From a virus, in IMG/VR virus record IMGVR_UViG_3300025889_000025, positions 1 through 40,629 of that record: a DNA stretch of 40,629 bases, one strand, 5' to 3'. A program made the position numbers and the translations under genes. Within the stretch, counting starts at the first letter, position 1. Each line of letters starts with the position of its first letter. Positions 1-40,629 of the stretch are shown piece by piece. The notes beneath the pieces were generated by a model. It had not been told where the DNA came from. It saw only the letters and a list, made by a program, of their open reading frames with translations, and made no database searches.

Positions 1-100
1 GCAATATCTGAATACAAAAATTTCTTTGGCACAGGTCAAGGAACTTCAGGAACAAATGGCGCTATCAACGGCGGTGCTAAAGATGATGGCGGTGGCACAG
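1..100. repeat. Terminal redundancy: identical to 40530-40629
   Basis: The first 100 bases match the last 100 bases exactly. The match includes 27 bases of unique sequence upstream of the 66-bp tandem repeat, so the overlap is not caused by the repeat alone. The round length of 100 suggests an assembler k-mer overlap from a circular or circularly permuted molecule rather than a biological terminal repeat. The unit length is then 40,529 bp. Confidence 0.95.
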
Positions 101-1881
101 GTCAAGGAACTTCAGGAACAAATGGCGCTATCAACGGCGGTGCTAAAGATGATGGCGGTGGCACAGATCAAACTCTTACACCAACAAATGTTCCACGAGG
201 TGCCGTTTTAGAACCTGCAGATTTAGGTGTTGTTTCAATTAAGTCAATCAATGATATGACTCAAGAAGAGATTGATGCTTTTACTCAAGCAACAGTTGCT
301 GCTGGTGGAAAATCAACGGATCCGGCAAATCGTTTGCCAGGTGAGTCTGCAAGTGCAGCAAATGCCCGCATAACTGAAGGATACAAAAAATTCCTTGCAA
401 AACCAGTAGCAAGTGAAGATGCCATAAATGCAGGTGCTGAAGTAAAATTTGTTCGTACGGGTTCTGGTGGCCAAGGCGAATATACAGTTGTGACACCTGT
501 TGGCTACACTGGTCCAGAAATCAAAACCACAAATTGGACTGAAGGTATTATTCCAAACACTGGTAAATATACAACAGGCTCAGATGCTGGAAAATTTGTT
601 GATGCAGAAGGAAATGTTACACCAGTTCCAACATTTAATGATTTAGCAAGTGGCACAGTTACCCCACCACCTGCCGTAGATTATACATCTGGTTTAAGCG
701 TAACTCAATTAGCACAAGAAGCCAATAGAGAACGTGGTGGATATTATGGAGGAACTGTAGGACCTACAGGACCTAATGTTCCTTCTATCGCTGGAATTAC
801 TGGTCCAACAGGTTTAACTGGTCCAACTGGTCCTATTATAACTCCAACAGGTCCAACAGGTTTAACTGGTCCAACTGGTCCTGGATTTGTTCCTGGAATT
901 ACTGGTGCAACATTACCTATTGGACCAACTGGTGCAGCCGTACAAACTTATACAGCACCAGATGGAACTAAATTTACCGATGCTGCTGCTTATGTTAATT
1001 ATACAAATATGCTTCAATCTGGTCAGCAAGCACGCCAGTCAGCATATGATGTACTATTAAATGAATTTAATAAATATGGCCTTGGTTCGTTAGTAGAAGG
1101 CATTAAGGATTTAATTAAATCTAATGTTTCGCCATCAGAGTTTTCTATTGCCTTACAAAATACTGATGCTTATAAGCAGCGTTTTGCTGCTAACCAAGAC
1201 CGTATTAAGCAGGGTTTACGTGCATTAACTCCAGCAGAATACATTGGTCTTGAGGACCAGTATCAAAACATTATGCGTAACTATGGACTACCTGCTTCTT
1301 ACTACAGCAAGGATTCTATAGGAACCCAAGCTGGGTTTAATAAGTTTATTGCTAATGACGTATCAGCAGCAGAGTTAGAAGATCGTATTGCTACAGCGCA
1401 GAAGCGTGTTATTAACGCAGACCCTGCAGTAACTGATGCACTACGCCAGTTCTACCCAGACATTACCAATGCAGATATTTTGGCATACACACTTGACCCT
1501 ACCAACGCACTTGAAAATATCAAGCGTAAGGTAACTGCCGCAGAAATTGGTGGTGCTGCATTAGGTCAAGGACTTATGACTAACGCAGCAAGCGCTGAAG
1601 ATTTGGCTAAGTATGGAATTACTAAAGCACAAGCACAGCAAGGTTATGGAACTATCGCTGAGTTCCTACCATCAGCAACCAAACTTGGTGATATCTATGC
1701 TGAACAAGGACTTGGTGCCTATGACCAAGCAACTGCGGAACAAGAAGTATTTGGAACAAGAGGTGCAGCAGAGGCTGCACGTAAACGCAAGAAACTTGCA
1801 GAACTAGAAACACGTGCATTCCAAGGTCAAGCTGGAACAGCACAAGGAGCATTAGCGCGAGACCGCGCTGGCTCAATTTAA
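1..1881 (+). CDS. Large virion-type protein, 3' part of a 771-aa gene that crosses the contig ends
   Basis: This is the continuation of the gene that starts at 40095. Joining 40095-40529 to 1-1881 gives one open frame of 771 codons. The ATG at 256 is in the same frame and is internal, not the real start. Residues 155-198 are two exact 22-residue Gly-rich repeats. Residues about 396-460 hold short collagen-like GPTG stretches. The C-terminal half is helical and Ala-rich and ends in a basic segment with an [16 protein letters not shown] stretch. The gene sits between a 532-aa virion-type protein and the scaffold and capsid genes, so it is probably a structural or internal (ejected) virion protein. 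That role is inferred from position; I recognise no catalytic motif. Confidence 0.85.
28..159 (+). repeat. Two perfect 66-bp in-frame tandem repeats
   Basis: Bases 28-93 and 94-159 are identical, and a partial third copy starts at 160 (ggcacaga). Each unit encodes 22 residues that are Gly/Thr/Asn/Asp-rich ([11 protein letters not shown] then [11 protein letters not shown]). Because a unit lies inside the contig overlap, the true copy number could be higher than two. Confidence 0.95.
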
Positions 1882-1890: not shown

Positions 1891-1968
1891 CCAACAGAAC
1901 CACCGGCCTGTTGGAGCGACATCAATAACCGGTAGTGGGAGCCATACTGCGTCACCCCAAACAGTATG
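1891..1968 (+). other. Two tandem stem-loops upstream of the scaffold/capsid genes
   Basis: The gap between the 771-aa gene and the scaffold-like gene holds two inverted repeats. The first is CCAACAG (1891-1897) with CTGTTGG (1908-1914), loop 10 nt. The second is CATACTG (1943-1949) with CAGTATG (1962-1968), loop 12 nt. Neither is followed by a U-tract, so they are more likely mRNA-processing, stability or attenuation elements than classic terminators. The function is inferred. Confidence 0.45.
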
Positions 1969-2003
1969 TGGCCTACGTCAAACATAGAATGGGAGATGGA
2001 CTA

Positions 2004-2462
2004 ATGTCCAATTACGAGTACGAGGACGACGATGACTTTTTAATGGAGTCAAATGATCTCGTTAAACAACTACGCAAACAACTAAAGCAAAGAGATAAAG
2101 AGCTTAATGAATTTAAGTCTCAATTTGAAAATCTCTCTAAGGCGCAACGTGAACGAGCAATTAAAGATGCCCTCGAATCGCGTGGAGTAAATGGCAAAGT
2201 TGCTAAATTTATTCCACAGGACTTAGACCCAACTGAGGAGTCTTTGTCTAAATGGCTTGAAGATAACGCCGATGTATTCGGCTTTCAGGTCGAAGATAAA
2301 CAACCAGTAGTAGACCCAGCACAAGCTGCTGCTTATAAGAAAATGAATAATGCCGTTGACCAAGGATTAACTCCTGATTCAACAGATGACATTATGCGTA
2401 AACTCCTATCTGCAGATAGTAAAGAGGCGCTGGACGAAATTATTCGTAACTCTGGTCTCTAA
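2004..2462 (+). CDS. Scaffold-like protein
   Basis: A 152-aa protein with an acidic N-terminus (YEYEDDDDF), a Lys/Glu-rich helical, coiled-coil-like segment (about residues 18-55) and an acidic C-terminal half. It lies directly upstream of the major capsid gene, which is the usual place for a scaffolding protein. The frame is open from 1935, but ATG 2004 is preferred because GGAGATGGA precedes it and the leader region 1891-1968 forms hairpins. The assignment rests on composition and position only. Confidence 0.65.
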   Translation: MSNYEYEDDDDFLMESNDLVKQLRKQLKQRDKELNEFKSQFENLSKAQRERAIKDALESRGVNGKVAKFIPQDLDPTEESLSKWLEDNADVFGFQVEDKQPVVDPAQAAAYKKMNNAVDQGLTPDSTDDIMRKLLSADSKEALDEIIRNSGL

Positions 2463-2488: not shown

Positions 2489-3412
2489 ATGGCAATTCCA
2501 TCAGGTACGCTCACCGGTACCAGTGCGATTAGCAACCTCGTACAAACAGCATATGATCAGTACGTCCGTATGGCGTTACGTTCTATTCCTGTTATGCGTG
2601 CTCTTGCTGACGTAAAGCCGGTGCAGCAGGCGATGCCAGGTTCATCAGTTGTATTCTCAATCTACTCAGATTTAGCTCAGGCTACATCTACTTTGACAGA
2701 ATCAACAGATGTTTCTTCAATCGCTCTTGGTAATCCAAATCAGATTACTGTAACACTTCAGGAATACGGTTCAGCCGTAACCACAACCAAGAAGTTAAAC
2801 CTAACTTCATTCAACGATGTAGACGCTGCTCTTGCAGATATCATCGCTTATAACGCTGCAGACTCTATTGATGCTGTTGTTGCTGGTGTTCTTACATCAG
2901 GCACAAACATCATCTACGGTGGTACTGCAACAAACACCGCAGGTATCACAGCAGGTTCAACAATCTCTGTATCAGATATCCGCGCTGCTGTAACAAACCT
3001 TCGCTCAAACAAAGCTCTGCCTCGTATCGGCGAACTATATGCAGCATACCTACATCCAAAGCAGACAGCTGACCTTCGTGCAGAAACAGGTACTGGTGGA
3101 TTCCAGGATCTATCTAAGTACGTAGACCGCACACCATTCGTGGCTGGTGCAGTTGGTGTACTTGAAGGTGCATTCATTGTTGAAACACCTCGCGTACCTT
3201 ACACATCAAACGGTTCGGTAAACGTCTACTCTGCAATCGTTGCAGGTCGTGAAGCACTTGCTGAAGCTCAAGGACAAGATATCTCTACAGTTATCGGTCC
3301 ACAAATTGACGCGCTTCGCCGCTTCCATACAATCGGTTGGTACTACTTCGGTGGATGGAATCTACTGCGTACCGCTGCTTTGTACAATATCCAAACTTCA
3401 ACAGCTTACTAA
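2489..3412 (+). CDS. Major capsid protein (N4-gp56-like)
   Basis: A 307-aa protein that would build the head shell. The C-terminal half has features I associate with N4-gp56-type capsid proteins: a YLHPKQTADLR segment, a GxxxGVLEGAFIVETPRVP segment and an AGREALAEAQ segment near the end. Length fits a HK97-fold coat protein. Context agrees, with a scaffold-like gene 26 nt upstream and small head genes downstream. The start ATG follows GAAAGG. Codons are regular and C-ended compared with neighbours (ATC, AAC, CGC frequent), consistent with high expression. Confidence 0.88.
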   Translation: MAIPSGTLTGTSAISNLVQTAYDQYVRMALRSIPVMRALADVKPVQQAMPGSSVVFSIYSDLAQATSTLTESTDVSSIALGNPNQITVTLQEYGSAVTTTKKLNLTSFNDVDAALADIIAYNAADSIDAVVAGVLTSGTNIIYGGTATNTAGITAGSTISVSDIRAAVTNLRSNKALPRIGELYAAYLHPKQTADLRAETGTGGFQDLSKYVDRTPFVAGAVGVLEGAFIVETPRVPYTSNGSVNVYSAIVAGREALAEAQGQDISTVIGPQIDALRRFHTIGWYYFGGWNLLRTAALYNIQTSTAY

Positions 3413-17015: not shown

Positions 17016-17267
17016 ATGAAGGTTCCTTGGGAGTTTGAGGAACCGGCGTGTGCTGAAGTAGGTGGAGACTTTTGGTTTCCAGAAAAATCTGATACATCTA
17101 ATGAGATGTTTCTAGCTAAATCAATATGCGGTTCGTGCACCCATAAAGTTGATTGCTTTGAGTGGGCTGTTAACAATGAGCGCTTCGGCATCTGGGGTGG
17201 CACAACTGAAATGCAAAGAGCAAGTATTAGAAGAATGAGAGATAAGCGACGTGTTAACCCTAACTAG
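17016..17267 (+). CDS. WhiB-family Fe-S transcription regulator
   Basis: An 83-aa protein with the four WhiB cysteines Cys12, Cys38, Cys41 and Cys47 (C-x25-CxxC-x5-C) that hold a 4Fe-4S cluster. The GIWGG turn follows at residues 58-62, and then a basic RRMRDKRR tail. WhiB proteins are confined to actinobacteria and their phages and act through the sigma factor. No Shine-Dalgarno site precedes the ATG. The gene is in the early operon and overlaps the ATPase gene by 17 nt. It may redirect host transcription. Confidence 0.92.
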   Translation: MKVPWEFEEPACAEVGGDFWFPEKSDTSNEMFLAKSICGSCTHKVDCFEWAVNNERFGIWGGTTEMQRASIRRMRDKRRVNPN

Positions 17268-27374: not shown

Positions 27375-27432
27375 TTTCTTTACCTTTTCTCTTATAGTCG
27401 GCTCATCAGTTGCGGGCGACTAACTCCGCAAG

Positions 27433-27450: not shown

Positions 27451-27456
27451 TTCGCC

Positions 27457-27809: not shown

Positions 27810-27847
27810 TTCATTACCTTTCTTTTGAGTGGTTATCCACTAACACA

Positions 27848-27877
27848 AGCATAGCGTAGTCTCCCCTAGTTTTACAA
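27848..27877 (-). promoter_or_regulatory. Candidate promoter for the leftward block
   Basis: On the reverse strand TTGTAA (27877-27872) and TATGCT (27853-27848) are spaced by 18 bp and point at the gene starting at 27809. The inverted repeat AGTGG-TTAT-CCACT (27828-27841) lies just downstream and could be an operator. Box matches are 4 of 6 each, so confidence is limited. Confidence 0.4.
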
Positions 27878-28143
27878 TACGCCAACATTAAAAGTGGTCA
27901 TAGTTTTAGATGACTAGTCAAAGCTCAGATTAGAACACTTGTTCGGTTACTGCCTGGTAATAAACGATTAGTCTAATAAGTTACTCAAGTCAAAGATCTG
28001 GTAACTTGTGAGAAACCTGAGAGGAAACTGAGAGCTAGAAGTTAGGGCAGATAGTTAGGAAAGGTTAGGAAGTTATTTAATTAAGTCACAATAATGTTGC
28101 GTTAATCTGCCCAATGGCTAGTCCGCCCTTTCCTTTATCCTTA

Positions 28144-28155
28144 TGTAACGTTACA
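28144..28155. promoter_or_regulatory. Perfect 12-bp palindrome TGTAACGTTACA
   Basis: A perfect dyad in the gene-free region, of the size and symmetry expected for a dimeric regulator. It is about 500 bp from terminase and 335 bp from the start of the leftward block, so either transcript could be controlled. No cognate protein can be named. Confidence 0.4.
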
Positions 28156-28396
28156 CGCTTTCTATGTAAAAGTCTGCAACAAAAGCCCTCGTTTCAGCAA
28201 AAAACGCGACCCCCCGTTGTTTAATTTATGTACCACTGTATGTTATGTACCCCCAAAAAATATATTTGCTAAACCCTTGTGTGCGATCTAATAATTAGTT
28301 AAATATGCCTCTGACCTGCGGTTTTATAGGTAGTGACTAACATCACATTTCAAAAACGAAAAATGGCCTTTTTTTTCTGCCTTAGTATATATTAGA

Positions 28397-28450
28397 GGGG
28401 TATTACGGCGGCGGGGATAGTAATACCCCGATCGGGCCTCTGCCGAGGCC
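28397..28450 (+). other. GC-rich hairpin cluster
   Basis: GGGGTATTAC (28397-28406) pairs perfectly with GTAATACCCC (28420-28429) over a 13-nt loop. Directly after it, GGCCTC (28435-28440) pairs with GAGGCC (28445-28450) over TGCC. A further CCGCC-cttaa-GGCGG stem follows near 28480-28495. The cluster is much more GC-rich than its surroundings. No U-tract is present. It could be a structured RNA, an origin element or a packaging site. Confidence 0.5.
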
Positions 28451-28585
28451 GCTAGGCCGAGCACTAACTTACCCCTCGCACCGCCCTTAAGGCGGCTCGG
28501 GAGCTTTTACAAGTTCGTTGGGTTTCAAGCGGGTGTAGTGTATCTATAGCCTACTATAAATCACTAATGCCTACCATACTTCCTT

Positions 28586-28611
28586 CCCTACCATCTACTC
28601 GCTTTAGCGAG
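28586..28611 (+). promoter_or_regulatory. CCCTACCATC element with inverted repeat upstream of terminase
   Basis: CCCTACCATC (28586-28595) is followed after 2 nt by CTCGCT-tt-AGCGAG (28598-28611). The same 10-mer with a different inverted repeat lies just before the early promoter at 15103. A second partial copy (CCTACCAT) is at 28570. The arrangement suggests one regulator acting at both operons. Confidence 0.4.
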
Positions 28612-28656
28612 AATTAATCACGGCGCTTGATTGTGACCCGCGCCACAGAAGGAATT

Positions 28657-30519
28657 ATGTCAGATAAAGCAACAGCAGACCTAGCCAAGAAGGTAATCCT
28701 TCAATGTATGGCAGAAGGTATGACGGTAGAGAAAGCCTGCCAGCAGGCAGGTAAGTCAGTTAAGACATATGACTACTACCGTAGATCAGATAAGAAGTTT
28801 GCAGAACTTGCAGATAGAACACGCCTCGGCGCTAAGACTAAAAGCTTTGCAGAAGCTGACGTTCACGATATCGGCTTTGCCGAGTTCAGAGAACGCTTCC
28901 TACATTCAAAGACTTTTGCCCACCAGCAAAATCTTATTGATGTCATAGAAGGTAGAGAACCATCTTGGTTGCACCCTGCTATGAAGTACGAAAAGGGTAT
29001 CGCCTCTAACCGTATCCTTATTAACATCCCACCAAACCACGCGAAGTCAATTACGGTCACTGTGGATTATGTCACCTATCGAATTGTACAAAATCCTAAC
29101 TTTCGTGTACTAATAGTTTCTCAGACCCAGCAGCTTGCAGCTGACTTCCTATACGCTATCAAACAGCGCCTTACAGCGCCTATGTATGAAGAACTACATC
29201 AGGCCTATGCTGCCGGTGTAGGCTTTAATAGTAAGTCTGCAACCTGGACTGCTACTCGTGTGGTATTCGGTAATGAACTACGTGAGAGTAGTGAAAAAGA
29301 CCCGAACATCGAGGCAGTCGGTATCGGCGGTCAGATCTACGGTAAGCGTGCCGATATGATTATTGTAGATGACGCGGTTACTTTAAAGAACGCAAATGAG
29401 TTTGAAAAGCAAATACGTTGGTTAACTCAGGACGTGAGGTCACGTCTTAACCCAACAGGTAAACTGATTGTGGTAGGTACACGAGTTGCAAGTGTGGACC
29501 TATACAAAGAATTACGGAACCCTGATAGATATCCAGGCGGTATTGTACCTTGGACCTATCTGGCAATGCCTGCACTATTGCAAGCAGATGAGAATCCTGA
29601 AAAGTGGGAAACACTTTGGCCCGCATCTGACCAACCATTCGATGGTCAGTTGGAAAATGAAAAAGATGAATACGGCCTCTATCCAAGATGGAATGGCAAG
29701 CATCTTTATAATGAACGCCAAGCTATGGATAGCGTAACGTGGGCGCTAGTTTACCAACAGCAAGATGTATCTGAGGATGCAGTATTTGACCCTATATGTG
29801 TCAGAGGTTCCATTGACGGAATGAGAAAGTCAGGACCTATCAATGCAGACGCACCAGGACATCCCAAGGATCTTCATAATTATACTATTGTCTGCGGCCT
29901 TGACCCTGCAATCGTTGGAGATACTGCCGCCGTTGTTTATGTTATTGACCGCAATACTCATAAGCGCTACATTCTGGATGCGATTAAAATTACGCGCCCA
30001 TCTCCACAAGCTATTAGAGACCTTATATTCAACTGGACTCAAATTTATAAACCGGCTGAATGGATAGTAGAGAAGAACGCTTTCCAGGCTTTTCTTACTC
30101 AAGATGAGGGTATTCGTTCCCATCTTAATACCCGCGGTATTTATTTAAGAGAACATCACACAGGCAATAACAAGTGGGATGCAGGATTCGGTGTGGCATC
30201 TATGTCTACCTTGTTTGGTACAAAGCAAGCAGACGGCAAGCACCACCGCGACAATCTTATCCATCTGCCTTCAGATCAAACCGAGAACATCAAGGCTCTT
30301 ATCGAGCAGTTGATTACTTGGTCGCCTACCACAAAGGGTAAGACCGATATGGTGATGGCGTTATGGTTCTGTGAGATTAGAGCACGCGAGATGCTGAATA
30401 ATGGTCAGTACTCACGTTCTCATATGCACAATCCATTCTTAAATAGGGCAGAGAGAAGTAAGCGAGTTGTCATTAACATTGACGAAATGCTCGCACAAGA
30501 AAACAAGTATTTCGTCTAA
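28657..30519 (+). CDS. terL: Terminase large subunit with N-terminal HTH-like extension
   Basis: A 620-aa packaging motor. The ATPase domain has a Walker A variant PPNHAKS (about 125-132), Walker B ADMIIVDDA (231-239) and the coupling segment VVGTR (271-275). The nuclease domain starts with VCGLDPAIVGD (Asp415) and has a WIVEKNAF strand. The first 60 residues (MTVEKACQQAGKSVKTYDYY) look like a helix-turn-helix found in small terminase subunits. ATG 28657 follows AAGGA; an upstream TTG at 28627 lacks such a site. No separate small terminase gene is visible, so the extension may recognise DNA. Confidence 0.92.
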   Translation: MSDKATADLAKKVILQCMAEGMTVEKACQQAGKSVKTYDYYRRSDKKFAELADRTRLGAKTKSFAEADVHDIGFAEFRERFLHSKTFAHQQNLIDVIEGREPSWLHPAMKYEKGIASNRILINIPPNHAKSITVTVDYVTYRIVQNPNFRVLIVSQTQQLAADFLYAIKQRLTAPMYEELHQAYAAGVGFNSKSATWTATRVVFGNELRESSEKDPNIEAVGIGGQIYGKRADMIIVDDAVTLKNANEFEKQIRWLTQDVRSRLNPTGKLIVVGTRVASVDLYKELRNPDRYPGGIVPWTYLAMPALLQADENPEKWETLWPASDQPFDGQLENEKDEYGLYPRWNGKHLYNERQAMDSVTWALVYQQQDVSEDAVFDPICVRGSIDGMRKSGPINADAPGHPKDLHNYTIVCGLDPAIVGDTAAVVYVIDRNTHKRYILDAIKITRPSPQAIRDLIFNWTQIYKPAEWIVEKNAFQAFLTQDEGIRSHLNTRGIYLREHHTGNNKWDAGFGVASMSTLFGTKQADGKHHRDNLIHLPSDQTENIKALIEQLITWSPTTKGKTDMVMALWFCEIRAREMLNNGQYSRSHMHNPFLNRAERSKRVVINIDEMLAQENKYFV

Positions 30520-31247: not shown

Positions 31248-32990
31248 TTGGCTCTAGATATTAAAGCGATTACCGCGAAGGTATCACGCTTACAGACCCG
31301 TTACGCATCTCGTGATGGTCGTATGCGCGATGTTCTTTCGGCGCGTCAAGGAGACATCAGTAAGGTCTATCCTTCTATGTTCAGCGAGGAATATCCAAAG
31401 CCGCTTGTTGCAAATATGATTGACGTGGCAGCGCGTGACCTTGCTGAAGCAATGGCACCACTGCCTGCATTTAACTGCTCTGCATCTAATATGGTTTCTG
31501 ACTCAGCACGTAAAGCTGCTGATAAGCGTAGCCGTATTGCAAACTACTATGTAGACCGTTCAAAGCTACAGGTGCAGATGTATACCGGTGCTGACTGGTT
31601 TAATACCTACGGTATGTTAATTGGTCGTATTGATATGGATTATGAGAACAACGAACCAACCATTTCACTTATCAATCCATTCGGTGCATACCCAGAGATT
31701 GACCGTTTCGGTCGCGTACTATCACTAACACAGATTGTTGGTATGGATGCTGAATCCCTTGCATCTATGTTCCCAGAACACGCAAACCAAATTCTAAACC
31801 GCAACCTATACACACCAGGTTCTCCTTACCTATCCCTTGTTCGTTATCACGACAAGGATCAAGATGTGCTCTACTGCCCAGAGCGCAAAGATTTAGTTTT
31901 ATCTCGAACACCAAATCCAATCGGTGAGTGCTTAGTATCTGTAAAGATGCGTTCATCTATTGATGGAGAAGCACGCGGTCAGTTCGATGACATTTTGGCA
32001 GTACAGCTTGCTAAGGCACGCTTTGCTGTTCTACAGATTCAGGCAGCCGAAAAGTCTATCCAAGCGCCTATCGCAATCCCACAAGATGTACAGGAATTAG
32101 CTCTCGGCCCTGATTCTATTATGCGCTCTGCAAATCCACAGGCTATTCGCCGTGTTCCACTAGAACTACCTGCTGGTGTATTTACAGAGTCAGGTGTATT
32201 AGATAGAGAACTTCGTATTGGTGCTCGCTATCCTGAAGTTAGAGGTGGTCAGATTGATGCTTCAGTTGTTACGGGGCGTGGTGTTCAGGCATTACAAGCA
32301 GGCTTTGATACACAAATTAAAGCAGCTCAAGCACAGTTTGCAATCTTCTTTACAGAACTTATCTCGCTTGCGTTCAAGGTAGACGAAAAGTTATTCGGTT
32401 CCACCAAGAAAGAAATCAAGGGTCTTGATGATGGTATGCCATACACAATGTCATACATTCCATCAAAAGATATCGCAGGCGATTATTCAGTAGATGTTCG
32501 TTACGGCATTATGTCTGGTATGAATCCAAACAATGCAATCGTGGCTCTACTACAGATGCGTAGCGATAAACTTGTATCTCGTGATTATGTACGCCGTGAA
32601 CTTCCAGTTGATATCAATATCAGCCAAGAAGAACAAAAGGTGGATATTGAAGAGATGCGTGATGCTCTTCGTGTTGCTGTTGCACAATATGCACAAGCCG
32701 TTCCTACTTTAGCAGCACAAGGTGCTCCAGTAGATCAAATCATTACACGCATTGCAGATGTAATTAAGGGCCGTCAAAAAGGTCAGTTAATTGAAGATAT
32801 TGTGGAAAAGGTCTTTGCACCAGAACCACAACCGATGGCACAACAAATGCCTCAAGCTCTAGGTGCAGGTGCGGCCCCCGTCTCTGCCTCGCAGCCAACT
32901 CCAGTACAACCTGGCGGTGCGGCCCCTGCGCCTGGTGCTGGACGACCAGACATTGCATCATTGCTCGCCTCAATCGGCGGCGCGGCATAA
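31248..32990 (+). CDS. Portal protein
   Basis: A 580-aa protein that would form the dodecameric DNA entry ring. It starts with TTG behind AAGGA. The order of a helical N-terminus (SRLQTRYASRDGRMRDVLSA), a DWFNTYGMLIGRIDMDY segment, an INPFGAYPEID turn and a helical middle with VRGGQIDASVVTGRGVQAL is typical of portal proteins of short-tailed actinobacterial phages. The C-terminal 60 residues are Pro/Ala/Gln-rich and disordered. It stands between terminase and the virion proteins, as expected. Confidence 0.88.
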   Translation: MALDIKAITAKVSRLQTRYASRDGRMRDVLSARQGDISKVYPSMFSEEYPKPLVANMIDVAARDLAEAMAPLPAFNCSASNMVSDSARKAADKRSRIANYYVDRSKLQVQMYTGADWFNTYGMLIGRIDMDYENNEPTISLINPFGAYPEIDRFGRVLSLTQIVGMDAESLASMFPEHANQILNRNLYTPGSPYLSLVRYHDKDQDVLYCPERKDLVLSRTPNPIGECLVSVKMRSSIDGEARGQFDDILAVQLAKARFAVLQIQAAEKSIQAPIAIPQDVQELALGPDSIMRSANPQAIRRVPLELPAGVFTESGVLDRELRIGARYPEVRGGQIDASVVTGRGVQALQAGFDTQIKAAQAQFAIFFTELISLAFKVDEKLFGSTKKEIKGLDDGMPYTMSYIPSKDIAGDYSVDVRYGIMSGMNPNNAIVALLQMRSDKLVSRDYVRRELPVDINISQEEQKVDIEEMRDALRVAVAQYAQAVPTLAAQGAPVDQIITRIADVIKGRQKGQLIEDIVEKVFAPEPQPMAQQMPQALGAGAAPVSASQPTPVQPGGAAPAPGAGRPDIASLLASIGGAA

Positions 32991-33174: not shown

Positions 33175-33408
33175 ATGGAAAACAAAGATAACGTACGCCG
33201 TCCGGTACGTCTTGCCGACTTCTTTGTAGTCGGTGCAGGATTTTTGCACAATTTAGCAAGTTCATTTGATGTATTAACAGAAGAACTTATGGAGTTAGCA
33301 ATCTATAACGCTAACCGAGAAACAGAACTGAACAATATATGGAATCAGTTCTCAACAGATTTAGAAACAATTACGGAGGATACGGATGGCACTACAGGAT
33401 TCAACTAA
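33175..33408 (+). CDS. Hypothetical protein, 77 aa
   Basis: The frame is open from 33106; ATG 33175 is preferred for its GAGAGGTG site at proper distance, though ATG 33157 is possible. The product has a short hydrophobic segment (LADFFVVGAGFLHNLA) and an acidic C-terminus. It overlaps the next gene by 23 nt. Function unknown; a minor virion role is likely. Confidence 0.6.
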   Translation: MENKDNVRRPVRLADFFVVGAGFLHNLASSFDVLTEELMELAIYNANRETELNNIWNQFSTDLETITEDTDGTTGFN

Positions 33409-33808
33409 TCCTATGCAGGGCGTATCTGGTCCTGGATCATTTTCAAAACGTACAGATTTAGAATATCAGTCTCCAGAATATGGAGCAGGCGTAGAGTATG
33501 CAGCGCAAAAAGCAGGCGCTCCTCTTGCTAAGACTCCAGATGTTTCTGCTGCAACACCAACTGAAGTTCGTGCAGTAGCGCTTCAAGCAGCGCAAGAACC
33601 AATTACATCTTTATTCGCACCAACTACTCGCCCACAAGAACCAATTACTACTGGTATTGATATGGGTCCAGGTGCAGGTTCAGAAGTGCTTATGGGTGCA
33701 CCACAACAAACAGAAAAACTTTCAGATACATTGGCAAAGATGTTGCCATACGATTCAACGGGTGAAATAGCAATTCTTTATCAGAACGCTTTAGCGCGAG
33801 GTATGTAA
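33386..33808 (+). CDS. Hypothetical protein, 140 aa
   Basis: GGAGG stands before the ATG. The sequence is Ala/Pro/Thr-rich and low in structure (TNPMQGVSGPGSF, TTRPQEPITTGIDMGPGAG), ending in a helix (KLSDTLAKMLPYDS). It lies directly before the 1559-aa virion protein. It may be a chaperone or minor virion component. Confidence 0.62.
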   Translation: MALQDSTNPMQGVSGPGSFSKRTDLEYQSPEYGAGVEYAAQKAGAPLAKTPDVSAATPTEVRAVALQAAQEPITSLFAPTTRPQEPITTGIDMGPGAGSEVLMGAPQQTEKLSDTLAKMLPYDSTGEIAILYQNALARGM

Positions 33809-33811
33809 CAA

Positions 33812-36800
33812 GTGGCAGATGCAAAAACTAATTTAAAAGTTGCAGCTGTTCAGGCAAACCTAAACCCAAAAGAGAATGATCAAGTTAATTCTCTTATTAA
33901 GTTATTAGATACCCACCAGACTCTTTCTAATATGCCTGCAACACAGGCACAACAGACTTATAAAAAATTACCTGCAAATCAACAGCAGTCTTTAAATCAA
34001 ATGTTTGGTTCAGCAACTCCTGAAACAAACAAACGTGGTTGGTTTGGTAATGCTTGGCATTACACCGGTGGCGCAGTCTTTGGTGCGTTAAATGAAGTTT
34101 CTGATTTTATGACTCGCCTTTATCGCACAGGTCAAGTCATTCGTTCTGAAAAACAATATCAAGGTCGTGGAACTCAAGGTATTATTGATGCTTGGAACAC
34201 AGCAAACGACAAGGGCGATTTAGTATTTAATCCAGACCGTATTACAAAAGCAAAAGCTAAGTTTGGCGATGAGCGCACAAACCTAGCAATTAAGGTAGCA
34301 GAGGGTAACGCACTTGCTGATATTCTTGCTAATGGAACAGATGAAGAAAAGATTCTTGCAGCCAAAGTATCCAAAGGTGAAGATAATCTATTCCAAGATA
34401 CGCTTGATGCAGTACAGGCGGCTAAGTATTCTCCAGGCCGTGAAGTTGCTAATGCGCTACTTCCAGCACAATTAGAGGGTTCAGGTTTTCTTTATAAAGG
34501 AATTTCTGGTTTTGTTGACGCATCTTATCGCGTATTTGCAGATCCTACACTCGCACTTGGTAAGGCTAAGAAAGCATATGATGCTGCTAACTATGCACTT
34601 TTTAAGATTGCCGGAGATGCCAACAAGGTAGACCAAGTATTTACTAAACCTGCTGTTGTTAACTTCTTTAACCAGTACGGTGCAGAACTAGAAAAGTTGG
34701 GCACAGCACGTAAGTCTAAAGATATTAAGGCTGCTGTTGAAGCATCTACAAATCTAAAGCGTCTTGCTCCTGAGTTTGGCCCAGCATCTGTTGATGAGTT
34801 CATTAAAGCTGGCGTTAAGGATGCTGCTACTGCTAAGAATTATCTAGCAAATCACGCAGACGTATCTAAAATTATGCAAGGCCAACCAGGTCGCGTAACT
34901 CCATTAATTCCAAAGATGGACCCTGCTCGTAGACTTCGTGTTGCTACCTATACCACTGCAGATAAAGTATTTAACATTGACAAAGTAGGCAATAAGATTG
35001 TTACCGCTTTGTATGGTCAAGCACCACAATATGAAGATATTACCACAGGTTTAACTGCTGGCGCAGAGGCTATTGCAGGGTTAGAAAAGAATGTTGGAAA
35101 ACTAAAGAACGTTAAGGATGGCGTTGTTCGTTTTTCTATCAATCAGATTCAAGGTCGTTTAGACCGCTTTGCTCGTAAGTTTACAACTGTTCCTTATTTC
35201 AAGGAAGGTTTTTTTGATGTAAACTCATTTGACGCACCTACTAAAATTTATCAAATTGCACGACTTGCTAACAGCCGTTACCACTCAAAGATTATTCAAG
35301 AAGCATTTACTGCAGGTAACGAAGGTCAGCGCAAGCAAATCTTTACAGGTTTATGGAATACAGTTGCTGAAGTTCGTGGCGTAAGTAAATCTGCTGAAGG
35401 TAAATCATTTATGAATGAATTTGCAGGACGTGGTTTAGATAAGATGTACGCAGCTGATGTAGTGCGTAATGGTGAGAACTTAGGTAATCCTGCTAACTTT
35501 GATGGTCAGCAGATGGCTTTATTCCCATATCAGTTATCATCAGGTATTGCAGTTCCAAAGATTGTTGATTTAGATCGTCTTGCTGTACGTTCAGGTTTAA
35601 TTAATCGTATTTTAGGTTTATCGCATCAGCGTTGGGCTGATAAGTTAACTAGCGGTTGGGTTATTGCAACCCTTGCTGGTCCACGTTTTGCTATCCGTAA
35701 CGCAACTGAAGATTTAATGCTACACCTTGCAGTAGGTGACTCTGCTTGGGGTATTGTAAAAGGTCGCGCTTTATCCACACGCCTACGTATTGCTCGTGGA
35801 ATTGGTGGAAATGAGCCTGCAAAAGAAACCTTAAAGCGTACTTTAAAATTAGATACTGAAGCTGGTGAACTCGGTGTTATTAATAAGTTTGTTTATAAAA
35901 AAGAATTATCAAAATATGCAACAAAATTAGAAGCAGCTAAAACACCAGAAGAAGTGCGTCAGGTATTTGCTGAGTCTGTATTAGAAAACAAACTTGCCTA
36001 TAAGTTAGACCCACAAGGTGCTGAGTATTTAGCTGATATTGCTAAATTTGGCAACATTGACGATACTCTTGCTGGAATAGCAGAAGGTTCTAAAAATGCT
36101 TTGCGTGGTGGAGACCGTTACTTATCTGTAACCGATGACGTATCTCGTTTCGGTAAGATGGGCGAATTAGAAATCAACGGCGTTAAGTACAAGCAATCTA
36201 CTGGAGATAAAGCGTTTACTCAGTTTAACCCAGTAGCAAACCAACAGAGCCGTGTATCTTGGCTTGTTCAACTTGGTATTAGTTCTAATGACTCACTTGC
36301 ATCTATTGCAGTTAAGCACTTAGATAATAAAGAAGTTGCTGTTGCAGAAATGCGTAAGTATTTAGAAGAACTTAGCCCTAAAGCACGTGAACGCTTTCAG
36401 CTTTATAGCGTTGGCGGTAACATAAATGTACACGCAGAACGTGCATATGAGGCAGTAAAGAATCTTTTCTCTAAGCGCAATGGCGATATTAATATGGACC
36501 TACTAAATAAGGTTCGTTATATTGATAAAGAGGGCAAGTTAGTTGTCTCATCTAAGAATTTAACACTAGATGATCTACCAGGCGTAGGCGATGCAAGCCT
36601 AGTTCCTGAATATATTTCTGGTCCAACCCTTGTTCCAGTAGCAGATAGCGCTAACTTTGCTGGTTCACTTGCTAATAAAACTTGGGATGCTATGGGTGAA
36701 GCCAATGCTCGTTTCTCTCGTGAGCCTATTGTCATCAATGAGATGATTCGTTTGCGTAAAGAGATGGCAGAGTCAGGTTTTGAAGCTCGTTTTATAGAGC

Positions 36801-38491
36801 AATACACTAAAGGCGTTGAAGCAGATGCGTTAGAAGCTGCTACAAACTACGCTAAGAAAGAACTTGTAACCCTAACTGAGCAGTTATCTATGAATCGCGT
36901 ACTTGCATACGTAGATAACCCTGCAGTTCGTAGCCAATTAGCTATGACTTCACGCAACTTCTCACGTTTCTACCGTGCAACTGAAGATTTCTACAAGCGT
37001 TTCTCACGTGCTGTGCGTTACAACCCAGAATCTATCGTACGTGCTTCTCTTACATACGAAGGTATTCACCATTCTGGCTTTGTGCAGACTGATGACAACG
37101 GAGATATGTACTTTTTCTACCCAGGTTTGACACCTGTGTACCAGACAATGCAGGGTGTTGCTAACGGATTTGATTTCCCAGAGGCATTTAAGATTCCAAT
37201 GCCTGTGGAATTTGGTGGTAAGTTAAATATGATTACCCCATCATTAAATCCTGACTCATTGTTCCCTACATTTGCAGGACCATTAGCGGCAGTACCAATG
37301 AAGTTCGTATTTGGTATGGTTCCACAGTTAGATTCACTAGAATCTGTATTCCTTGGAACATATGCTCAAGACCAACCTATGGTTAATGCTATATTCCCAG
37401 CACACGTAACTCGTTTACTTGCAGGTCTAGATCGTAATGAGCGTAATTCTCAATATGCTTCAGCATTTCGTAAAGCTGCTACCTATTTAGAGGCTACCGG
37501 TCACGGCGTTAAGCCACGTTGGGATGAAGAAACTCAGACTTGGATTCGTCCATCTGAATCAGAACTAAATGATTACAAGAAAAAGATTTCAGCTGCAACT
37601 GTTACTGTATTAGGACTTCGTTTCCTATTTGGTTTCTTTGCACCAGCATCTCCACAGGTAACTTTAAAGTCAGAGATGGAGAAGTGGGTACGCGATAACG
37701 GTAGCGTAAGCTACAAACAAACATTTAACCAACTTATCTCTAAGTATAATGATTTAGATAAGGCTACTGGAGAATGGCTACGCCTATATCCTGACCAGAT
37801 GCCATACACAGTATCTGAATCAGATGACAATGTGGTATCAGTAATTCGTGCTGTAGATTCTACAGTGGAATGGATTGGCAAGAACCAAAAGGTTCTTAAG
37901 GATTACCCACAAGGTGGCCCATTCTTGATGCCAAAAGTTGGAGATTTCAACTTTGATGCTTACCGCTTATTGTTTAAGTCAGGTATTAAATACAGCAAAA
38001 CTATAGATAACTTCTTACAAGATATATCTACAGCCCGTGATAAACAGTTTTATTATGACCAGAAAGATGCTTACGAAACTGAACTTGCTAACACTTATGA
38101 TGACTTTAGCAAGCAAAGATTGAAGCAACAGTGGACAGATTGGTCTAAGCAATTTAAAGCTGTTCGTCCATTACTACAGCGTGAATTATCAGGTGGAGCA
38201 GAAACTGCTATTAACCGCCGTAACGCATATCAAGACCTACAGAATATGTTAAATGATAGTTCAGTTCGTCAGGTAGCACCACAAACTTTTGATGTCTTAA
38301 AGCAGATGTCAGAAATCTACGATTCATACGTATACAACAGCAGCATTGCAGTAGGCAATGGCGCTGCTGCTAGTGCGTATAAAGATATGTTAAAGCAGAA
38401 CACCAAGGTAGCGTTACAGCAATTAGCTGCAACAAATGCTAATGCTCAGGATGCTTACAATGTGATGTTCTCAGGATTGTTGGGAGACTAA
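33812..38491 (+). CDS. 1559-aa virion protein, putative internal/ejection protein
   Basis: The largest gene. The protein is helical throughout with many Lys/Ala-rich segments; a GWFGNAWHYTGGAVFGALN element is near the start. Hydrophobic stretches occur around VIATLAGPRFAIRN (about residue 620) and VTVLGLRFLFGFFAPA (about 1267). The size and hydrophobic patches fit an ejection protein such as those of T7 or N4-type phages, which pass into the host envelope. It starts with GTG. No lysozyme or polymerase motif is seen, so the role is inferred from size and place between portal and capsid genes. Confidence 0.7.
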   Translation: MADAKTNLKVAAVQANLNPKENDQVNSLIKLLDTHQTLSNMPATQAQQTYKKLPANQQQSLNQMFGSATPETNKRGWFGNAWHYTGGAVFGALNEVSDFMTRLYRTGQVIRSEKQYQGRGTQGIIDAWNTANDKGDLVFNPDRITKAKAKFGDERTNLAIKVAEGNALADILANGTDEEKILAAKVSKGEDNLFQDTLDAVQAAKYSPGREVANALLPAQLEGSGFLYKGISGFVDASYRVFADPTLALGKAKKAYDAANYALFKIAGDANKVDQVFTKPAVVNFFNQYGAELEKLGTARKSKDIKAAVEASTNLKRLAPEFGPASVDEFIKAGVKDAATAKNYLANHADVSKIMQGQPGRVTPLIPKMDPARRLRVATYTTADKVFNIDKVGNKIVTALYGQAPQYEDITTGLTAGAEAIAGLEKNVGKLKNVKDGVVRFSINQIQGRLDRFARKFTTVPYFKEGFFDVNSFDAPTKIYQIARLANSRYHSKIIQEAFTAGNEGQRKQIFTGLWNTVAEVRGVSKSAEGKSFMNEFAGRGLDKMYAADVVRNGENLGNPANFDGQQMALFPYQLSSGIAVPKIVDLDRLAVRSGLINRILGLSHQRWADKLTSGWVIATLAGPRFAIRNATEDLMLHLAVGDSAWGIVKGRALSTRLRIARGIGGNEPAKETLKRTLKLDTEAGELGVINKFVYKKELSKYATKLEAAKTPEEVRQVFAESVLENKLAYKLDPQGAEYLADIAKFGNIDDTLAGIAEGSKNALRGGDRYLSVTDDVSRFGKMGELEINGVKYKQSTGDKAFTQFNPVANQQSRVSWLVQLGISSNDSLASIAVKHLDNKEVAVAEMRKYLEELSPKARERFQLYSVGGNINVHAERAYEAVKNLFSKRNGDINMDLLNKVRYIDKEGKLVVSSKNLTLDDLPGVGDASLVPEYISGPTLVPVADSANFAGSLANKTWDAMGEANARFSREPIVINEMIRLRKEMAESGFEARFIEQYTKGVEADALEAATNYAKKELVTLTEQLSMNRVLAYVDNPAVRSQLAMTSRNFSRFYRATEDFYKRFSRAVRYNPESIVRASLTYEGIHHSGFVQTDDNGDMYFFYPGLTPVYQTMQGVANGFDFPEAFKIPMPVEFGGKLNMITPSLNPDSLFPTFAGPLAAVPMKFVFGMVPQLDSLESVFLGTYAQDQPMVNAIFPAHVTRLLAGLDRNERNSQYASAFRKAATYLEATGHGVKPRWDEETQTWIRPSESELNDYKKKISAATVTVLGLRFLFGFFAPASPQVTLKSEMEKWVRDNGSVSYKQTFNQLISKYNDLDKATGEWLRLYPDQMPYTVSESDDNVVSVIRAVDSTVEWIGKNQKVLKDYPQGGPFLMPKVGDFNFDAYRLLFKSGIKYSKTIDNFLQDISTARDKQFYYDQKDAYETELANTYDDFSKQRLKQQWTDWSKQFKAVRPLLQRELSGGAETAINRRNAYQDLQNMLNDSSVRQVAPQTFDVLKQMSEIYDSYVYNSSIAVGNGAAASAYKDMLKQNTKVALQQLAATNANAQDAYNVMFSGLLGD

Positions 38492-38492
38492 A

Positions 38493-40091
38493 TTGGCATC
38501 TACTAAAGAAAAGTGGATTGCGTATTATAAAGCTATGCTGCCGCCAGATAGACAAGATCCAAAAATTATTGAAGCGCTTGCAGAACGTGCTATAAAATTA
38601 GGGTACCCTGTTCCTAAAACAACTCCTTCACCTACTGCTACACCTACACCTACTCCAACCGCTACACCTACTGCTTCACCTACTGCTTCAGCAAAAACTA
38701 CACCAAAGCCAACGCCAAAGAAAACATCTGTGTCATCACCGACTCAAGATCCTTATGCTGGATTTAAAGGTTCATCTCCGCAGGCAACAGGAGATCCTGT
38801 TGCAAAAGACATTTACAACAGCACTGATGCTTATCGTAAAGAATTAGCAATTTTACTCAAGAATGCTGGATTTAATGTTCCAACAACTGGTAAACAATCT
38901 ACATCTATTGCAATTGCGGATGCTTATATTCAAGCAAGACAGCAAGCTATTCTTGAAAATTCTCGCTTAGGAATTACTAGAACCGTTGAACAATGGCTTA
39001 AGGATAACGTAAAGACACCAACTGGTACCAAAGTAGGTGGTCCATCTACTCAGATTGCTACCAATGTTCTTAGCCCTACTGAGGCAACTGCAGAAATCAA
39101 CAAGGTATTTCAAGACCTTCTTGGCCGCGATGCTACATCTGAAGAACTTACAGCATTTAAAAAACAATTAGAGGCAGCAGAAAAAGCTAACCCTACAAAG
39201 ACTACATATAAAACAGTTAATGGAGTTACTACTTCTAGCACTACTGGTGGCATTGACCGTGACCAGTTTTTAACTAATCTTATTAATCAGGATAAGAATC
39301 TAAAAGCAGAACTAGGCAAGATAGAAACTACTGACGCTAATGTTCTTAGACGAGAAAAAGATAAGGCTATATTTGATAAGGCTGTTGCAGCAGCCGCTGG
39401 CGATGCCAATAAGATTGCTACAATTCAATCAACTACATCTTATGGCAAAGCACTTGAGAATGTTCGTCGTCAGGTTGAAACACTTGCAACTACTGCAGGT
39501 GCAGTTCTTACCGCTGAAGAACTTGATGCTATTGCTAAGGAAGCAACAGACCAAGCACTAGATACCAACATCTATCAGCTTAAGGCTTTCATTGATAGCA
39601 AGTTAAAGTTTGGTGCAGGTAAAGATGGCGTTTACAAAGGTGCTGCTGGTGAAAGCGTAGATGCTTTAACAAAAATTGCTGCAGCTAATGGCCTTGATTT
39701 ACAGAAAGCATTTGGTGCTCAACTACCTGATTGGCTTACTGCTATCAATAAGGGTGAATCTATTGAGACCTACAAGAAGATTATTCGTGATGTAGCCAAA
39801 ATTGGTATGCCTGAAAAGGTTGCTAAGTTAATAGATCAGGGTATTGACCTATCTACTATTTATGCTCCATATAAGAACATTATGGCTACTACGTTAGAAA
39901 TTAACCCACAGACTATTGATATAAATGACCCAACTCTACGCTCTGCTATTACCGCAGATACCGAAGTTCCTATCTATGAGTTTGAACGTCAACTTCGCAA
40001 AGATAACCGTTGGCAATATACCAATCAAGCTAAACAAGAAGTGGCTAGTGCAACACAAAAGATTTTACAAGACTTTGGATTTATGGGGTAA
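38493..40091 (+). CDS. 532-aa virion protein with Thr/Pro linker
   Basis: A TTG start follows GGGAG. Residues 1-40 are helical. Residues about 43-80 are a Thr/Pro/Ser repeat linker (PTATPTPTPTATPT). The middle has INKVFQDLLGRDATSEELTAF, close to the DUF4214-like helical pattern. The C-terminus ends RKDNRWQYTNQAKQEVASAT. The gene lies 3 nt before the 771-aa gene, and the two are probably partners in the virion. The linker could be flexible or glycosylated. No enzymatic motif. Confidence 0.7.
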   Translation: MASTKEKWIAYYKAMLPPDRQDPKIIEALAERAIKLGYPVPKTTPSPTATPTPTPTATPTASPTASAKTTPKPTPKKTSVSSPTQDPYAGFKGSSPQATGDPVAKDIYNSTDAYRKELAILLKNAGFNVPTTGKQSTSIAIADAYIQARQQAILENSRLGITRTVEQWLKDNVKTPTGTKVGGPSTQIATNVLSPTEATAEINKVFQDLLGRDATSEELTAFKKQLEAAEKANPTKTTYKTVNGVTTSSTTGGIDRDQFLTNLINQDKNLKAELGKIETTDANVLRREKDKAIFDKAVAAAAGDANKIATIQSTTSYGKALENVRRQVETLATTAGAVLTAEELDAIAKEATDQALDTNIYQLKAFIDSKLKFGAGKDGVYKGAAGESVDALTKIAAANGLDLQKAFGAQLPDWLTAINKGESIETYKKIIRDVAKIGMPEKVAKLIDQGIDLSTIYAPYKNIMATTLEINPQTIDINDPTLRSAITADTEVPIYEFERQLRKDNRWQYTNQAKQEVASATQKILQDFGFMG

Positions 40092-40094: not shown

Positions 40095-40629
40095 ATGCCA
40101 AGAGATGAAGATTCAAGTTACAATTATATTGATTTTGCAGAACTTGCTCGCCTATTGGCACAAGCTGCTGTTGCTACCCCTGCCGTAGTTCAAGCACCTG
40201 CAAATACTGCCCCATCTGCACCTGCAGTTCAACAAGCAGTTACACAAATTGCTCAAGCAGTAGTGCCAGTTATTGCTCCAACAGTTCCACGTCAAGCAAT
40301 ACTTGCTTTGGCAAAAGAAATTGCTGATGAAGTTGTTACTACACCTGAGATTATTAAAGCAGATACTGGTGTAAGTGTTCCACCAAAAGTTATTGATAGC
40401 ATTGTTTCTGAAGTTTCAGATGTAATACCACAAAACGTTATAGATAGCATAGAAAAAAGTCTTTTTAATGCTAGTGCTAAACAAGTGGTAGTACCAACAC
40501 CTTCTCAGGCACTTGATGAGCGTTCACAAGCAATATCTGAATACAAAAATTTCTTTGGCACAGGTCAAGGAACTTCAGGAACAAATGGCGCTATCAACGG
40601 CGGTGCTAAAGATGATGGCGGTGGCACAG
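40095..40629 (+). CDS. Large virion-type protein, 5' part (continues at position 1)
   Basis: The ATG at 40095 lies 3 nt after the stop of the 532-aa gene. The first 145 codons (to 40529) join base 1 in frame, giving 771 aa. The start MPRDEDSSYNYIDFAELARL is acidic and helical. Then come Ala/Pro/Val-rich segments (VVPVIAPTVPRQAILALAKE) and [12 protein letters not shown], which leads into the Gly-rich repeats. Bases 40530-40629 repeat 1-100. See the entry at 1-1881 for the remainder. Confidence 0.85.
   Translation, partial: MPRDEDSSYNYIDFAELARLLAQAAVATPAVVQAPANTAPSAPAVQQAVTQIAQAVVPVIAPTVPRQAILALAKEIADEVVTTPEIIKADTGVSVPPKVIDSIVSEVSDVIPQNVIDSIEKSLFNASAKQVVVPTPSQALDERSQAISEYKNFFGTGQGTSGTNGAINGGAKDDGGGT
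40530..40629. repeat. Terminal redundancy, copy of 1-100
   Basis: Identical to the first 100 bases. It contains one complete 66-bp tandem repeat unit (40557-40622) and 27 bases of unique sequence before it. It should be trimmed when the circular genome is written. Confidence 0.95.

What the first reader, a model, noticed from the sequence alone, without database searches (positions are those of the whole stretch)
33812..40091. Three large unassigned virion proteins between portal and scaffold
Proteins of 1559, 532 and 771 aa lie in a row where podoviruses usually have no such genes; T7-type ejection proteins come after the tail genes. The Thr/Pro linker, the Gly-rich repeats and the hydrophobic patches suggest an ejection or envelope-crossing assembly adapted to actinobacterial walls.
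Basis: inference. Interest (0 to 1): 0.55.

Follow-up and report, generated by a model that had tools for sequence, protein, structure and literature searches.

The report
Swappable injection-protein cassette in actinophages
Three neighbouring genes in this phage most likely encode proteins it pushes into its bacterial host along with its DNA; the set is shared across short-tailed phages of Actinobacteria, is exchanged between phages with nearly identical heads, and in some relatives the giant protein carries extra enzymes.

Summary
The three proteins are real (1559, 532, 771 aa). The quoted coordinates cover two; the third crosses the circular joint (40095-40529 + 1-1881). The order portal - small gene - giant - 532-type - 771-type - scaffold - capsid is normal in Streptomyces Beephvirinae, cultured Planktophila phages E7/F5 and their relatives: 87 of 87 giants in complete blocks.

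My reading is an ejection (injected internal protein) cassette. Evidence: (1) the 532 C-terminal module is fused to NlpC/P60 or transglycosylase domains in relatives. (2) Some giants carry enzymes using cytoplasmic cofactors: ADP-ribosyltransferase in 5 and a ParB/Srx-like domain in 5 of 27 F5-type contigs, at one site; GNAT in 1 of 10 E7-type contigs. The window's giant has none. (3) Giants are exchanged independently of the capsid: at capsid identity above 95%, median giant identity is 38%. E7 and F5, 96-98% identical over most of their genomes, carry remote versions.

Unproven: virion presence, ejection, conduit. No T7/P22 sequence match was found; fold searches were inconclusive.

The parts
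33812..38491 (+). giant protein, 1559 aa; proposed injected internal virion protein (no enzyme domain found in this allele)
   Evidence: ORF; homologous to the E7 1764-aa and Beephvirinae ~1650-aa giants; no Pfam match at E up to 1, two PHROGs of unknown function only at E 0.09
38493..40091 (+). 532-aa protein: Thr/Pro linker, n532 domain, ct532 domain; proposed second cassette protein
   Evidence: ORF; phrog_6654, unknown function, E 1e-26; ct532 shared with Immanuel3 gp11 and gp12; model of residues 180-532 pLDDT 92.6
38601..38762 (+). Thr/Pro-rich linker, about residues 37-90 of the 532-aa protein
   Evidence: sequence
39066..39257 (+). n532 domain (residues 192-255), on a separate gene (gp10) in Beephvirinae and in some IMG/VR loci
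39486..40088 (+). ct532 domain (residues 332-532), fused to NlpC/P60 or SLT domains in some relatives
40095..40529 (+). first 145 residues of the 771-aa protein, which crosses the circular joint
   Evidence: 100-base terminal overlap; length of the joined reading
1..1881 (+). residues 146-771 and stop of the 771-aa protein; conserved C-terminal domain about bases 1000-1878
   Evidence: matches Immanuel3 gp13; phrog_8424, unknown function, E 2e-98
28..159 (+). two copies of a 66-base (22-residue) Gly-rich repeat
33386..33808 (+). 140-aa gene upstream of the giant; its distances track those of the giant (rho 0.68)
   Evidence: phrog_8200, unknown function, E 1e-15
31248..32990 (+). portal protein, upstream limit of the block
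   Evidence: phrog_104, E 1e-17; 50% identical to the E7 portal
28627..30519 (+). terminase large subunit
   Evidence: phrog_38, E 9e-65
1935..2462 (+). probable scaffold, downstream limit of the block
   Evidence: phrog_7813 of unknown function, weak scaffold hit phrog_648 E 0.005; homologue directly before the capsid gene in relatives
2489..3412 (+). major capsid protein
   Evidence: phrog_1357 E 1e-75 and PF13252 E 5e-14
17016..17267 (+). WhiB-like gene, indicator of an actinobacterial host
   Evidence: PF02467 E 1.2e-14 at 17037-17225

Best explanation
The 140-aa gene and the three large genes form the ejection-protein cassette of a podovirus of Actinobacteria. Proposed mechanism (inferred): the three large proteins are built into the head close to the portal, leave before or with the DNA, and help it through the wall and the single membrane. 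The 532-type protein supplies or docks wall-cutting activity through its ct532 module. In this phage that module carries no recognised enzyme, so wall cutting would have to come from elsewhere. The giant is the part that reaches the cytoplasm. In some alleles it carries an extra enzyme in an insertion slot that would act early in infection; the window's allele carries none that I could find. The cassette, above all the giant, is exchanged between phages as an allele largely independent of capsid type. Shown: gene order, homology, domain fusions, inserts, exchange. Inferred: packaging in the head, ejection, conduit, effector action.
For: Same order with 87 of 87 giants distinct in sequence in complete blocks. 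Profiles built without the reference phages hit the Beephvirinae proteins: giant E 3e-44 to 3e-40, ct532 of both gp11 and gp12 E 1e-29 to 1e-27, ct771 (gp13) E 7e-68 to 5e-64. ct532 is fused to NlpC/P60 (E 4e-30) and SLT (E 2.5e-5) in Immanuel3 and to SLT (E 8e-10) in L130. ADP-ribosyltransferase lies in the giant's frame in 5 of 47 records and nowhere else in those records; insert alone E 2e-18, and it also matches a solved ADP-ribosyltransferase at E 3e-4. GNAT lies in the giant of L161, over the Pfam cut-off for the insert alone and in the record search, below it for the whole protein. The 10 long inserts in 27 F5-type contigs lie at one site (L188 read). NAD+ and acetyl-CoA are cytoplasmic cofactors (established knowledge). 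Variability: at capsid identity above 95% (76 of 1275 pairs of 51 loci) medians are scaffold 92, ct771 81, 140-aa gene 64, ct532 49, giant 38%. In five P22-like phages gp7 is 65-94%, gp20 mostly 21-60% and gp16 mostly 22-26% identical (PMC10883804, section 20).
Against: No proteomic or structural proof for any member. No recognised enzyme domain in the window's own three proteins. No sequence match to T7 or P22 ejection proteins was found. Transmembrane segments, which the ejection review calls conserved in gp14 and gp16 homologues, are scarce. Enzyme inserts were seen only in F5- and E7-type giants: ADP-ribosyltransferase in 0 of 50 records found with the window's own proteins, and no ART, GNAT or ParB match in a Pfam scan of 31 giants. 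Most F5-type slots are empty (17 of 27). ct532 with hydrolases could equally be a tail-tip lysin anchor as in phi29. Giant and ct532 distances are uncorrelated (rho -0.02), so the trio does not always travel as one. F5's giant is found by the giant profile only with HMMER's filters off (not listed).
Confidence: 0.66

Rival explanations
1. Tail-knob or distal-tail proteins: the ct532 proteins are tail-tip lysins of the kind found in Gram-positive podoviruses, and the giant is a tail component.
For: Depositors call the Streptomyces ct532 homologues minor tail protein, peptidase or glycosylase. NlpC/P60 and SLT fusions. phi29 carries its wall enzymes at the tail tip (recalled).
Against: Other genes after the capsid gene, conserved in E7 and Immanuel3, are better tail candidates (7723-8625, 8635-9159, 11629-13815), though their roles are not proven either. 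Enzymes using NAD+ or acetyl-CoA inside giants make no sense outside the cell. The genes lie in the head/packaging block. Giant distances track the 140-aa gene (rho 0.68), not the capsid (-0.03).
Confidence: 0.14
2. Minor head proteins of the MuF or polyvalent kind: packaged at the portal and delivered as effectors, but not forming a DNA conduit.
For: Downstream of the portal gene, as MuF genes are (PMC5576092, passages). ADP-ribosyltransferase, GNAT and ParB/Srx-type domains are listed cargo of polyvalent proteins (PMC5512222, passages); the same kinds are found here.
Against: No MuF domain hit in Pfam for the window giant or 31 giants. The giant is kept without such cargo in most phages (17 of 27 F5-type slots empty), so cargo delivery cannot be its only role. 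Constant association with the ct532 protein.
Confidence: 0.15
3. External fibres or surface decorations; the 771-aa protein with its collagen-like Gly-Pro-Thr stretch is the best candidate.
For: In the part of the 771-aa protein read from bases 1-1878, residues 253-335 and 228-314 hit 'collagen like minor tail' and 'tail fiber protein' profiles at E 8e-6 and 6e-4.
Against: Those hits fall on low-complexity repeats; the conserved part is the non-repetitive C-terminal domain (phrog_8424, E 2e-98, function unknown). Better fibre candidates lie after the capsid gene (5727-6650, 8635-9159). Enzyme cargo in giants of relatives.
Confidence: 0.05

Closest known systems
Streptomyces Beephvirinae gp09-gp13 (Immanuel3, Manuel, FlowerPower, WRightOn)
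   Same: Same order between portal and scaffold; homologous giant, n532 (gp10), ct532 (gp11, gp12) and ct771 (gp13)
   Different: There ct532 exists twice; in Immanuel3 it is fused to NlpC/P60 and to an SLT domain. In the window n532 and ct532 are one protein without a recognised enzyme. The tRNA array between gp13 and scaffold is absent here
Planktophila phages LanE43AprE7 and LanE43AprF5, 8-kb island (Kavagutti 2023, PMC10202952, whole text read)
   Same: The island is this cassette: E7 8373-16921 holds most of the 140-aa-type gene, the giant, the 532-type gene and nearly all of the 771-type gene
   Different: The paper reports no homologues between the two islands; profiles built here show remote ones. 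The window giant is 27% identical to E7's
T7 gp14/gp15/gp16 and P22 gp7/gp20/gp16 ejection proteins
   Same: Set of adjacent genes with one very large member; wall hydrolase attached to one member in some phages; among the most variable virion genes in P22-like phages (PMC8954989 section 6; PMC10883804 section 20)
   Different: No sequence match found; genes lie before the capsid gene rather than after the tail genes; transmembrane segments scarce
Polyvalent proteins and MuF toxins; T4 Alt (PMC5512222, PMC5576092, passages)
   Same: Virion-associated proteins carrying ADP-ribosyltransferase, GNAT or ParB/Srx-type domains, proposed to be delivered into the host
   Different: No MuF or polyvalent-domain hit in 31 giants; here single inserts sit inside a giant that is usually cargo-free

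Membership tests
Actinobacterial podovirus cassette (Beephvirinae / E7 type) | Order portal - small gene - giant - ct532 protein - ct771 protein - scaffold - capsid | tested here: met
   Window order; 87 of 87 giants in complete blocks
Actinobacterial podovirus cassette (Beephvirinae / E7 type) | Sequence homology of all three proteins | tested here: met
Actinobacterial podovirus cassette (Beephvirinae / E7 type) | Peptidoglycan hydrolase fused to ct532 (seen in Beephvirinae and L130) | tested here: not met
   No such Pfam hit in the 532-aa protein
T7/P22 ejection-protein families | Sequence relationship to gp14/15/16 or gp7/20/16 profiles | tested here: not met
   No ejection or internal-virion family among PHROG and Pfam matches at E up to 1; giants match only PHROGs of unknown function. 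That these libraries hold T7/P22 ejection profiles is recalled, not checked
T7/P22 ejection-protein families | Shared fold | tested here: inconclusive
   Giant fragment pLDDT 63, 532-aa fragment pLDDT 93; no PDB match above noise
T7/P22 ejection-protein families | Transmembrane segments in gp14/gp16 homologues | tested here: not met
   Kyte-Doolittle only: one segment in the window giant, any in 6 of 78 giants; none in the 532-aa protein at >=1.3; two weak ones in the 771-aa protein
T7/P22 ejection-protein families | Wall hydrolase on one ejection protein (present in some members only) | tested here: not met
   None in the window; present in relatives
T7/P22 ejection-protein families | Packaged inside the head and released into the host | not testable with these tools
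   Needs proteomics or cryo-EM; the Abafar paper holds no 'mass spectrometry'
MuF minor head proteins | MuF domain | tested here: not met
   No MuF hit
Polyvalent proteins | Several effector or polyvalent-associated domains in one protein | tested here: not met
   Window giant has none; relatives have single inserts

The most novel reading that the evidence does not exclude
Podoviruses of single-membrane Actinobacteria have their own ejection system, unrelated in sequence to those of T7 and P22. Its core is a giant injected protein that doubles as a delivery vehicle with a cargo slot (ADP-ribosyltransferase, ParB/Srx-like nuclease or empty in F5-type giants; GNAT at another site in an E7-type giant). 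It circulates as a set of deeply divergent, freely exchanged alleles, perhaps to escape superinfection exclusion or host membrane targets.
Probability: 0.45. Interest if true: 0.78.

Novelty: new variant of a known kind. Interest (0 to 1): 0.6.

Why it matters
A review says ejection proteins are common in podoviruses of Gram-negative hosts and absent from phi29-like phages (PMC8954989, section 6), so how podoviruses cross an actinobacterial wall and membrane is open. This cassette is a concrete candidate, present in phages of the abundant freshwater order Nanopelagicales. The cultured pair E7/F5, same host strain and nearly identical except for the cassette and some other variable regions, is a natural experiment. 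The cargo slot offers new ADP-ribosyltransferases and other early-acting phage enzymes with testable targets. It also corrects a published statement that the E7 and F5 islands share no homologues.

Tried and rejected
Fold search of the giant (residues 195-1385, pLDDT 63): best PDB hit E 0.014 to an ion channel with TM 0.07, taken as noise; best VIA Z 4.2; the only BFVD hits at E <= 0.001 are two pieces of one uncharacterised phage protein, A0A6J5Q4K1. Weak tape-measure rows below it were not used. Fold search of residues 180-532 of the 532-aa protein (pLDDT 92.6): best PDB E 0.82, best VIA Z 4.5, no usable match; no T7 or P22 ejection protein appears in the lists shown, which proves nothing. 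PDB sequence searches with the giant and 532 families: nothing at E below 0.07.

A resemblance of the giant's conserved 'AGPRxxxRNAxED' motif to large polyvalent domains, recalled, was not supported: no such Pfam hit in 31 giants. A relation between the middle repeat of Immanuel3 gp11/12 and ct771 is only suggestive (hhalign E 0.0075, probability 5%). The ParB/Srx identity of the second insert rests on a recalled 'EGNHRL' motif plus ParB_N hits inside the insert in 2 of the 4 insert-bearing records searched, below the cut-off (E 8.5e-5, 1.6e-4). Against it: Pfam scans of the L144 and L152 inserts found nothing, and PDB searches of those inserts gave designed repeat proteins and one unrelated hit at E 0.05. 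The hypothesis that the trio always moves as one unit was rejected: giant and ct532 distances are uncorrelated.
Full report
What is there. The third, 771 aa, exists only on the closed circle: the contig has an exact 100-base terminal overlap, and 40095-40529 continues in frame at base 1 to 1881. The overlap holds 27 bases in front of the 66-base repeat, so the closure does not rest on the repeat alone; the true number of repeat copies is uncertain. The block is TerL 28627-30519, portal 31248-32990, a 140-aa gene 33386-33808, giant, 532 aa, 771 aa, a scaffold-like gene 1935-2462 and the capsid gene 2489-3412.

Relatives. tblastn against 50,697 phage records found the 532-aa protein in 30 records and the distal part of the 771-aa protein in 30; each set is 29 Streptomyces records plus one labelled ct2KA10. 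The giant hit only ct2KA10. The Streptomyces phages whose records I opened belong to the subfamily Beephvirinae; a short-tailed (podoviral) particle is described for Abafar (PMC11536984, passages). The ct2KA10 records are the Planktophila phages E7 (OX376640) and F5 (OX376641), named LanE43-AprE7 and -AprF5 in the records and described in PMC10202952 (whole text read). A WhiB gene, an actinophage marker according to that paper, was found in 10 of 10 records tested, the window among them.

Anatomy across the group. IMG/VR scans gave loci L007-L128; later scans added L131-L202, often several loci per contig. Profiles built only from the window and the first IMG/VR loci, without Beephvirinae or E7, hit the Beephvirinae giant (E 3e-44 to 3e-40), ct532 in both gp11 and gp12 (1e-29 to 1e-27), ct771 in gp13 (7e-68 to 5e-64) and n532 in gp10 (1e-13 to 2e-12), for a database size set to 1000. 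In loci that hold the 140-aa gene, an ORF over 1400 aa, ct532, ct771, scaffold and capsid, the order was the same for 87 of 87 giants distinct in exact sequence. Truncated loci were dropped before that count; the giant was taken by length because its profile scores F5-type giants weakly or not at all. n532 and ct532 are one protein in the window and many loci, and two proteins in others and in Beephvirinae.

Wall enzymes. Of 60 ct532 proteins scanned, NlpC/P60 was found in 2 and SLT in 1. Confirmed one by one: Immanuel3 gp11 (NlpC/P60, E 4e-30) and gp12 (SLT, E 2.5e-5), against none in 8 IMG/VR proteins. A further SLT fusion (E 8e-10) is in L130, a contig with portal, giant and capsid genes that was binned in a Nevskia MAG. 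The window's 532-aa protein has none. The ct532 module thus serves as a holder for wall enzymes in some phages.

Exchange of the cassette. E7 and F5 are 96-98% identical over most of their genomes (a stretch of about 3.5 kb around the record ends of E7 is patchier, 79-98% with gaps), but E7 8373-16921 and F5 22069-30335 (reverse complement) do not align. [quoted passage not shown] Profiles built here do find the same set in F5: giant E 2.5e-8 over part of its length only, ct532 E 1e-14, ct771 E 1.6e-10, 140-aa gene E 1e-11 (database size set to 100; the giant only with HMMER's filters off). With default filters ct532, ct771 and the 140-aa gene are still found, the giant is not. The island is therefore two remote versions of one cassette in two phages of one host strain. 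The same pattern recurs in metagenomic pairs: L086/L116, L100/L119 and L022/L047 are 90.6-92.5% identical up to a point inside the 140-aa gene and 88-94% identical again from inside the 771-type gene (L022/L047 also share 345 bases at 74% before it; L019/L060, the fourth pair checked, resumes there too but matches only 90 bases at 83% upstream). Among 51 deduplicated complete loci, capsid identity exceeds 95% in 76 of 1275 pairs; in these the median identity is scaffold 92, ct771 81, 140-aa gene 64, ct532 49, giant 38%, and 31 of the 76 have giants under 25% identical. For the window itself, L053 has capsid 97%, ct771 86% and giant 17% identity, while L010 has capsid 96% and giant 86%. Distances of the giant correlate with those of the 140-aa gene (rho 0.68, p 0.002) but hardly with ct771 (0.11, p 0.02) or scaffold (0.07, p 0.05) and not with ct532 (-0.02) or capsid (-0.03), while ct771 follows scaffold (0.51) and capsid (0.39). 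Pairs are not independent, and chimeric assembly cannot be excluded for single metagenomic contigs; E7 and F5 are sequenced cultures.

Enzyme cargo. The giant of L136 carries an ADP-ribosyltransferase domain (PF03496, E 1.6e-16; insert alone 2e-18), with the arginine, Ser-Ser-Thr and Glu-x-Glu elements present by eye (motif knowledge recalled). In 27 F5-type contigs that span the site, the slot after about F5 residue 821-828 is empty in 17, holds this domain in 5 (L136, L146, L186, L187, L188) and a ParB/Srx-like domain in 5 (L144, L181, L182, L183, L152). Not all are independent: L186/L187 have the same insert, as do L144/L181. L188 is cut by the contig end inside its insert; L185 breaks off just inside one of the first type and was not counted. 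F5 itself is empty. Of 10 E7-type contigs, 1 (L161) carries a 96-105-residue insert at another place with a match to part of the GNAT profile, over the cut-off for the insert alone and in the record search, below it for the whole protein. Record-wide searches found the ADP-ribosyltransferase in 0 of 50 records reached with the window's own proteins and in 5 of 47 others, always inside the giant's frame. GNAT was searched in those 47 only and hit 2: L161, and the Nevskia MAG as a whole genome. These enzymes need NAD+ or acetyl-CoA, so the giant should reach the cytoplasm (inference). The same three domain classes are listed for polyvalent proteins thought to be injected (PMC5512222, passages).

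How it most likely works. By analogy with P22, where gp16 and gp20 are among the most variable parts of the virion gene cluster, can be replaced by those of related phages, and are implicated as targets of the SieA exclusion protein (PMC10883804, abstract and section 20), I read the cassette as the ejection set: giant as gp16-like, 532-type as gp20/gp15-like, 771-type as the conserved partner. This is functional analogy. On sequence, position and transmembrane features the window's proteins do not qualify as members of the T7/P22 families. Both E7 and F5 infect the same strain, so the cassette type does not decide infection of that host.

What is known and what is new. The order and the proteins are on record in Beephvirinae annotations, and the E7/F5 island is in print. 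I found no paper that treats them as an ejection set or describes the cargo slot, in the searches; most subscription journals and bioRxiv preprints are not in that library. Virion presence, ejection and effector activity remain to be shown.

Noticed in passing
window 23997-24407 and 24352-25206, minus strand: Two overlapping ORFs in different frames match the end and the start of one C-5 cytosine methylase profile: a broken or split gene.
   Followed up: no
window 22696-23373: Sigma-70 region 4 match in a 225-aa protein; E7 and F5 also encode a sigma factor according to PMC10202952.
   Followed up: no
window 6660-7751, 18086-18754, 19460-20332: Two glycosyltransferase-type families and an epimerase/dehydratase, suggesting glycosylation of DNA, virion or cell surface.
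   Followed up: no
window 14018-14518: CHAP/NlpC-type endolysin after the 728-aa conserved protein; in Immanuel3 the endolysin lies between terminase and portal instead.
   Followed up: no
L130 (JADGHB010000036.1), whole locus: A contig of 302x coverage binned in a Nevskia MAG carries the full phage block of this actinophage group, so it is probably a misbinned phage.
   Followed up: partly
L139 (= L175), giant reading frame: The F5-type giant is split into two ORFs (1221 and 504 aa), a frame break or sequencing error.
   Followed up: no
L048 and L109, giants: A 70-residue insert at about window residue 696 plus further extra sequence; only a sub-threshold DUF3574 match in L048: possibly another cargo type.
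   Followed up: no
F5 (L129 reverse complement) 22465-22668: A 67-aa ORF between the 140-aa-type gene and the giant, present in F5 and not listed for E7; the window has no room for one.
   Followed up: no
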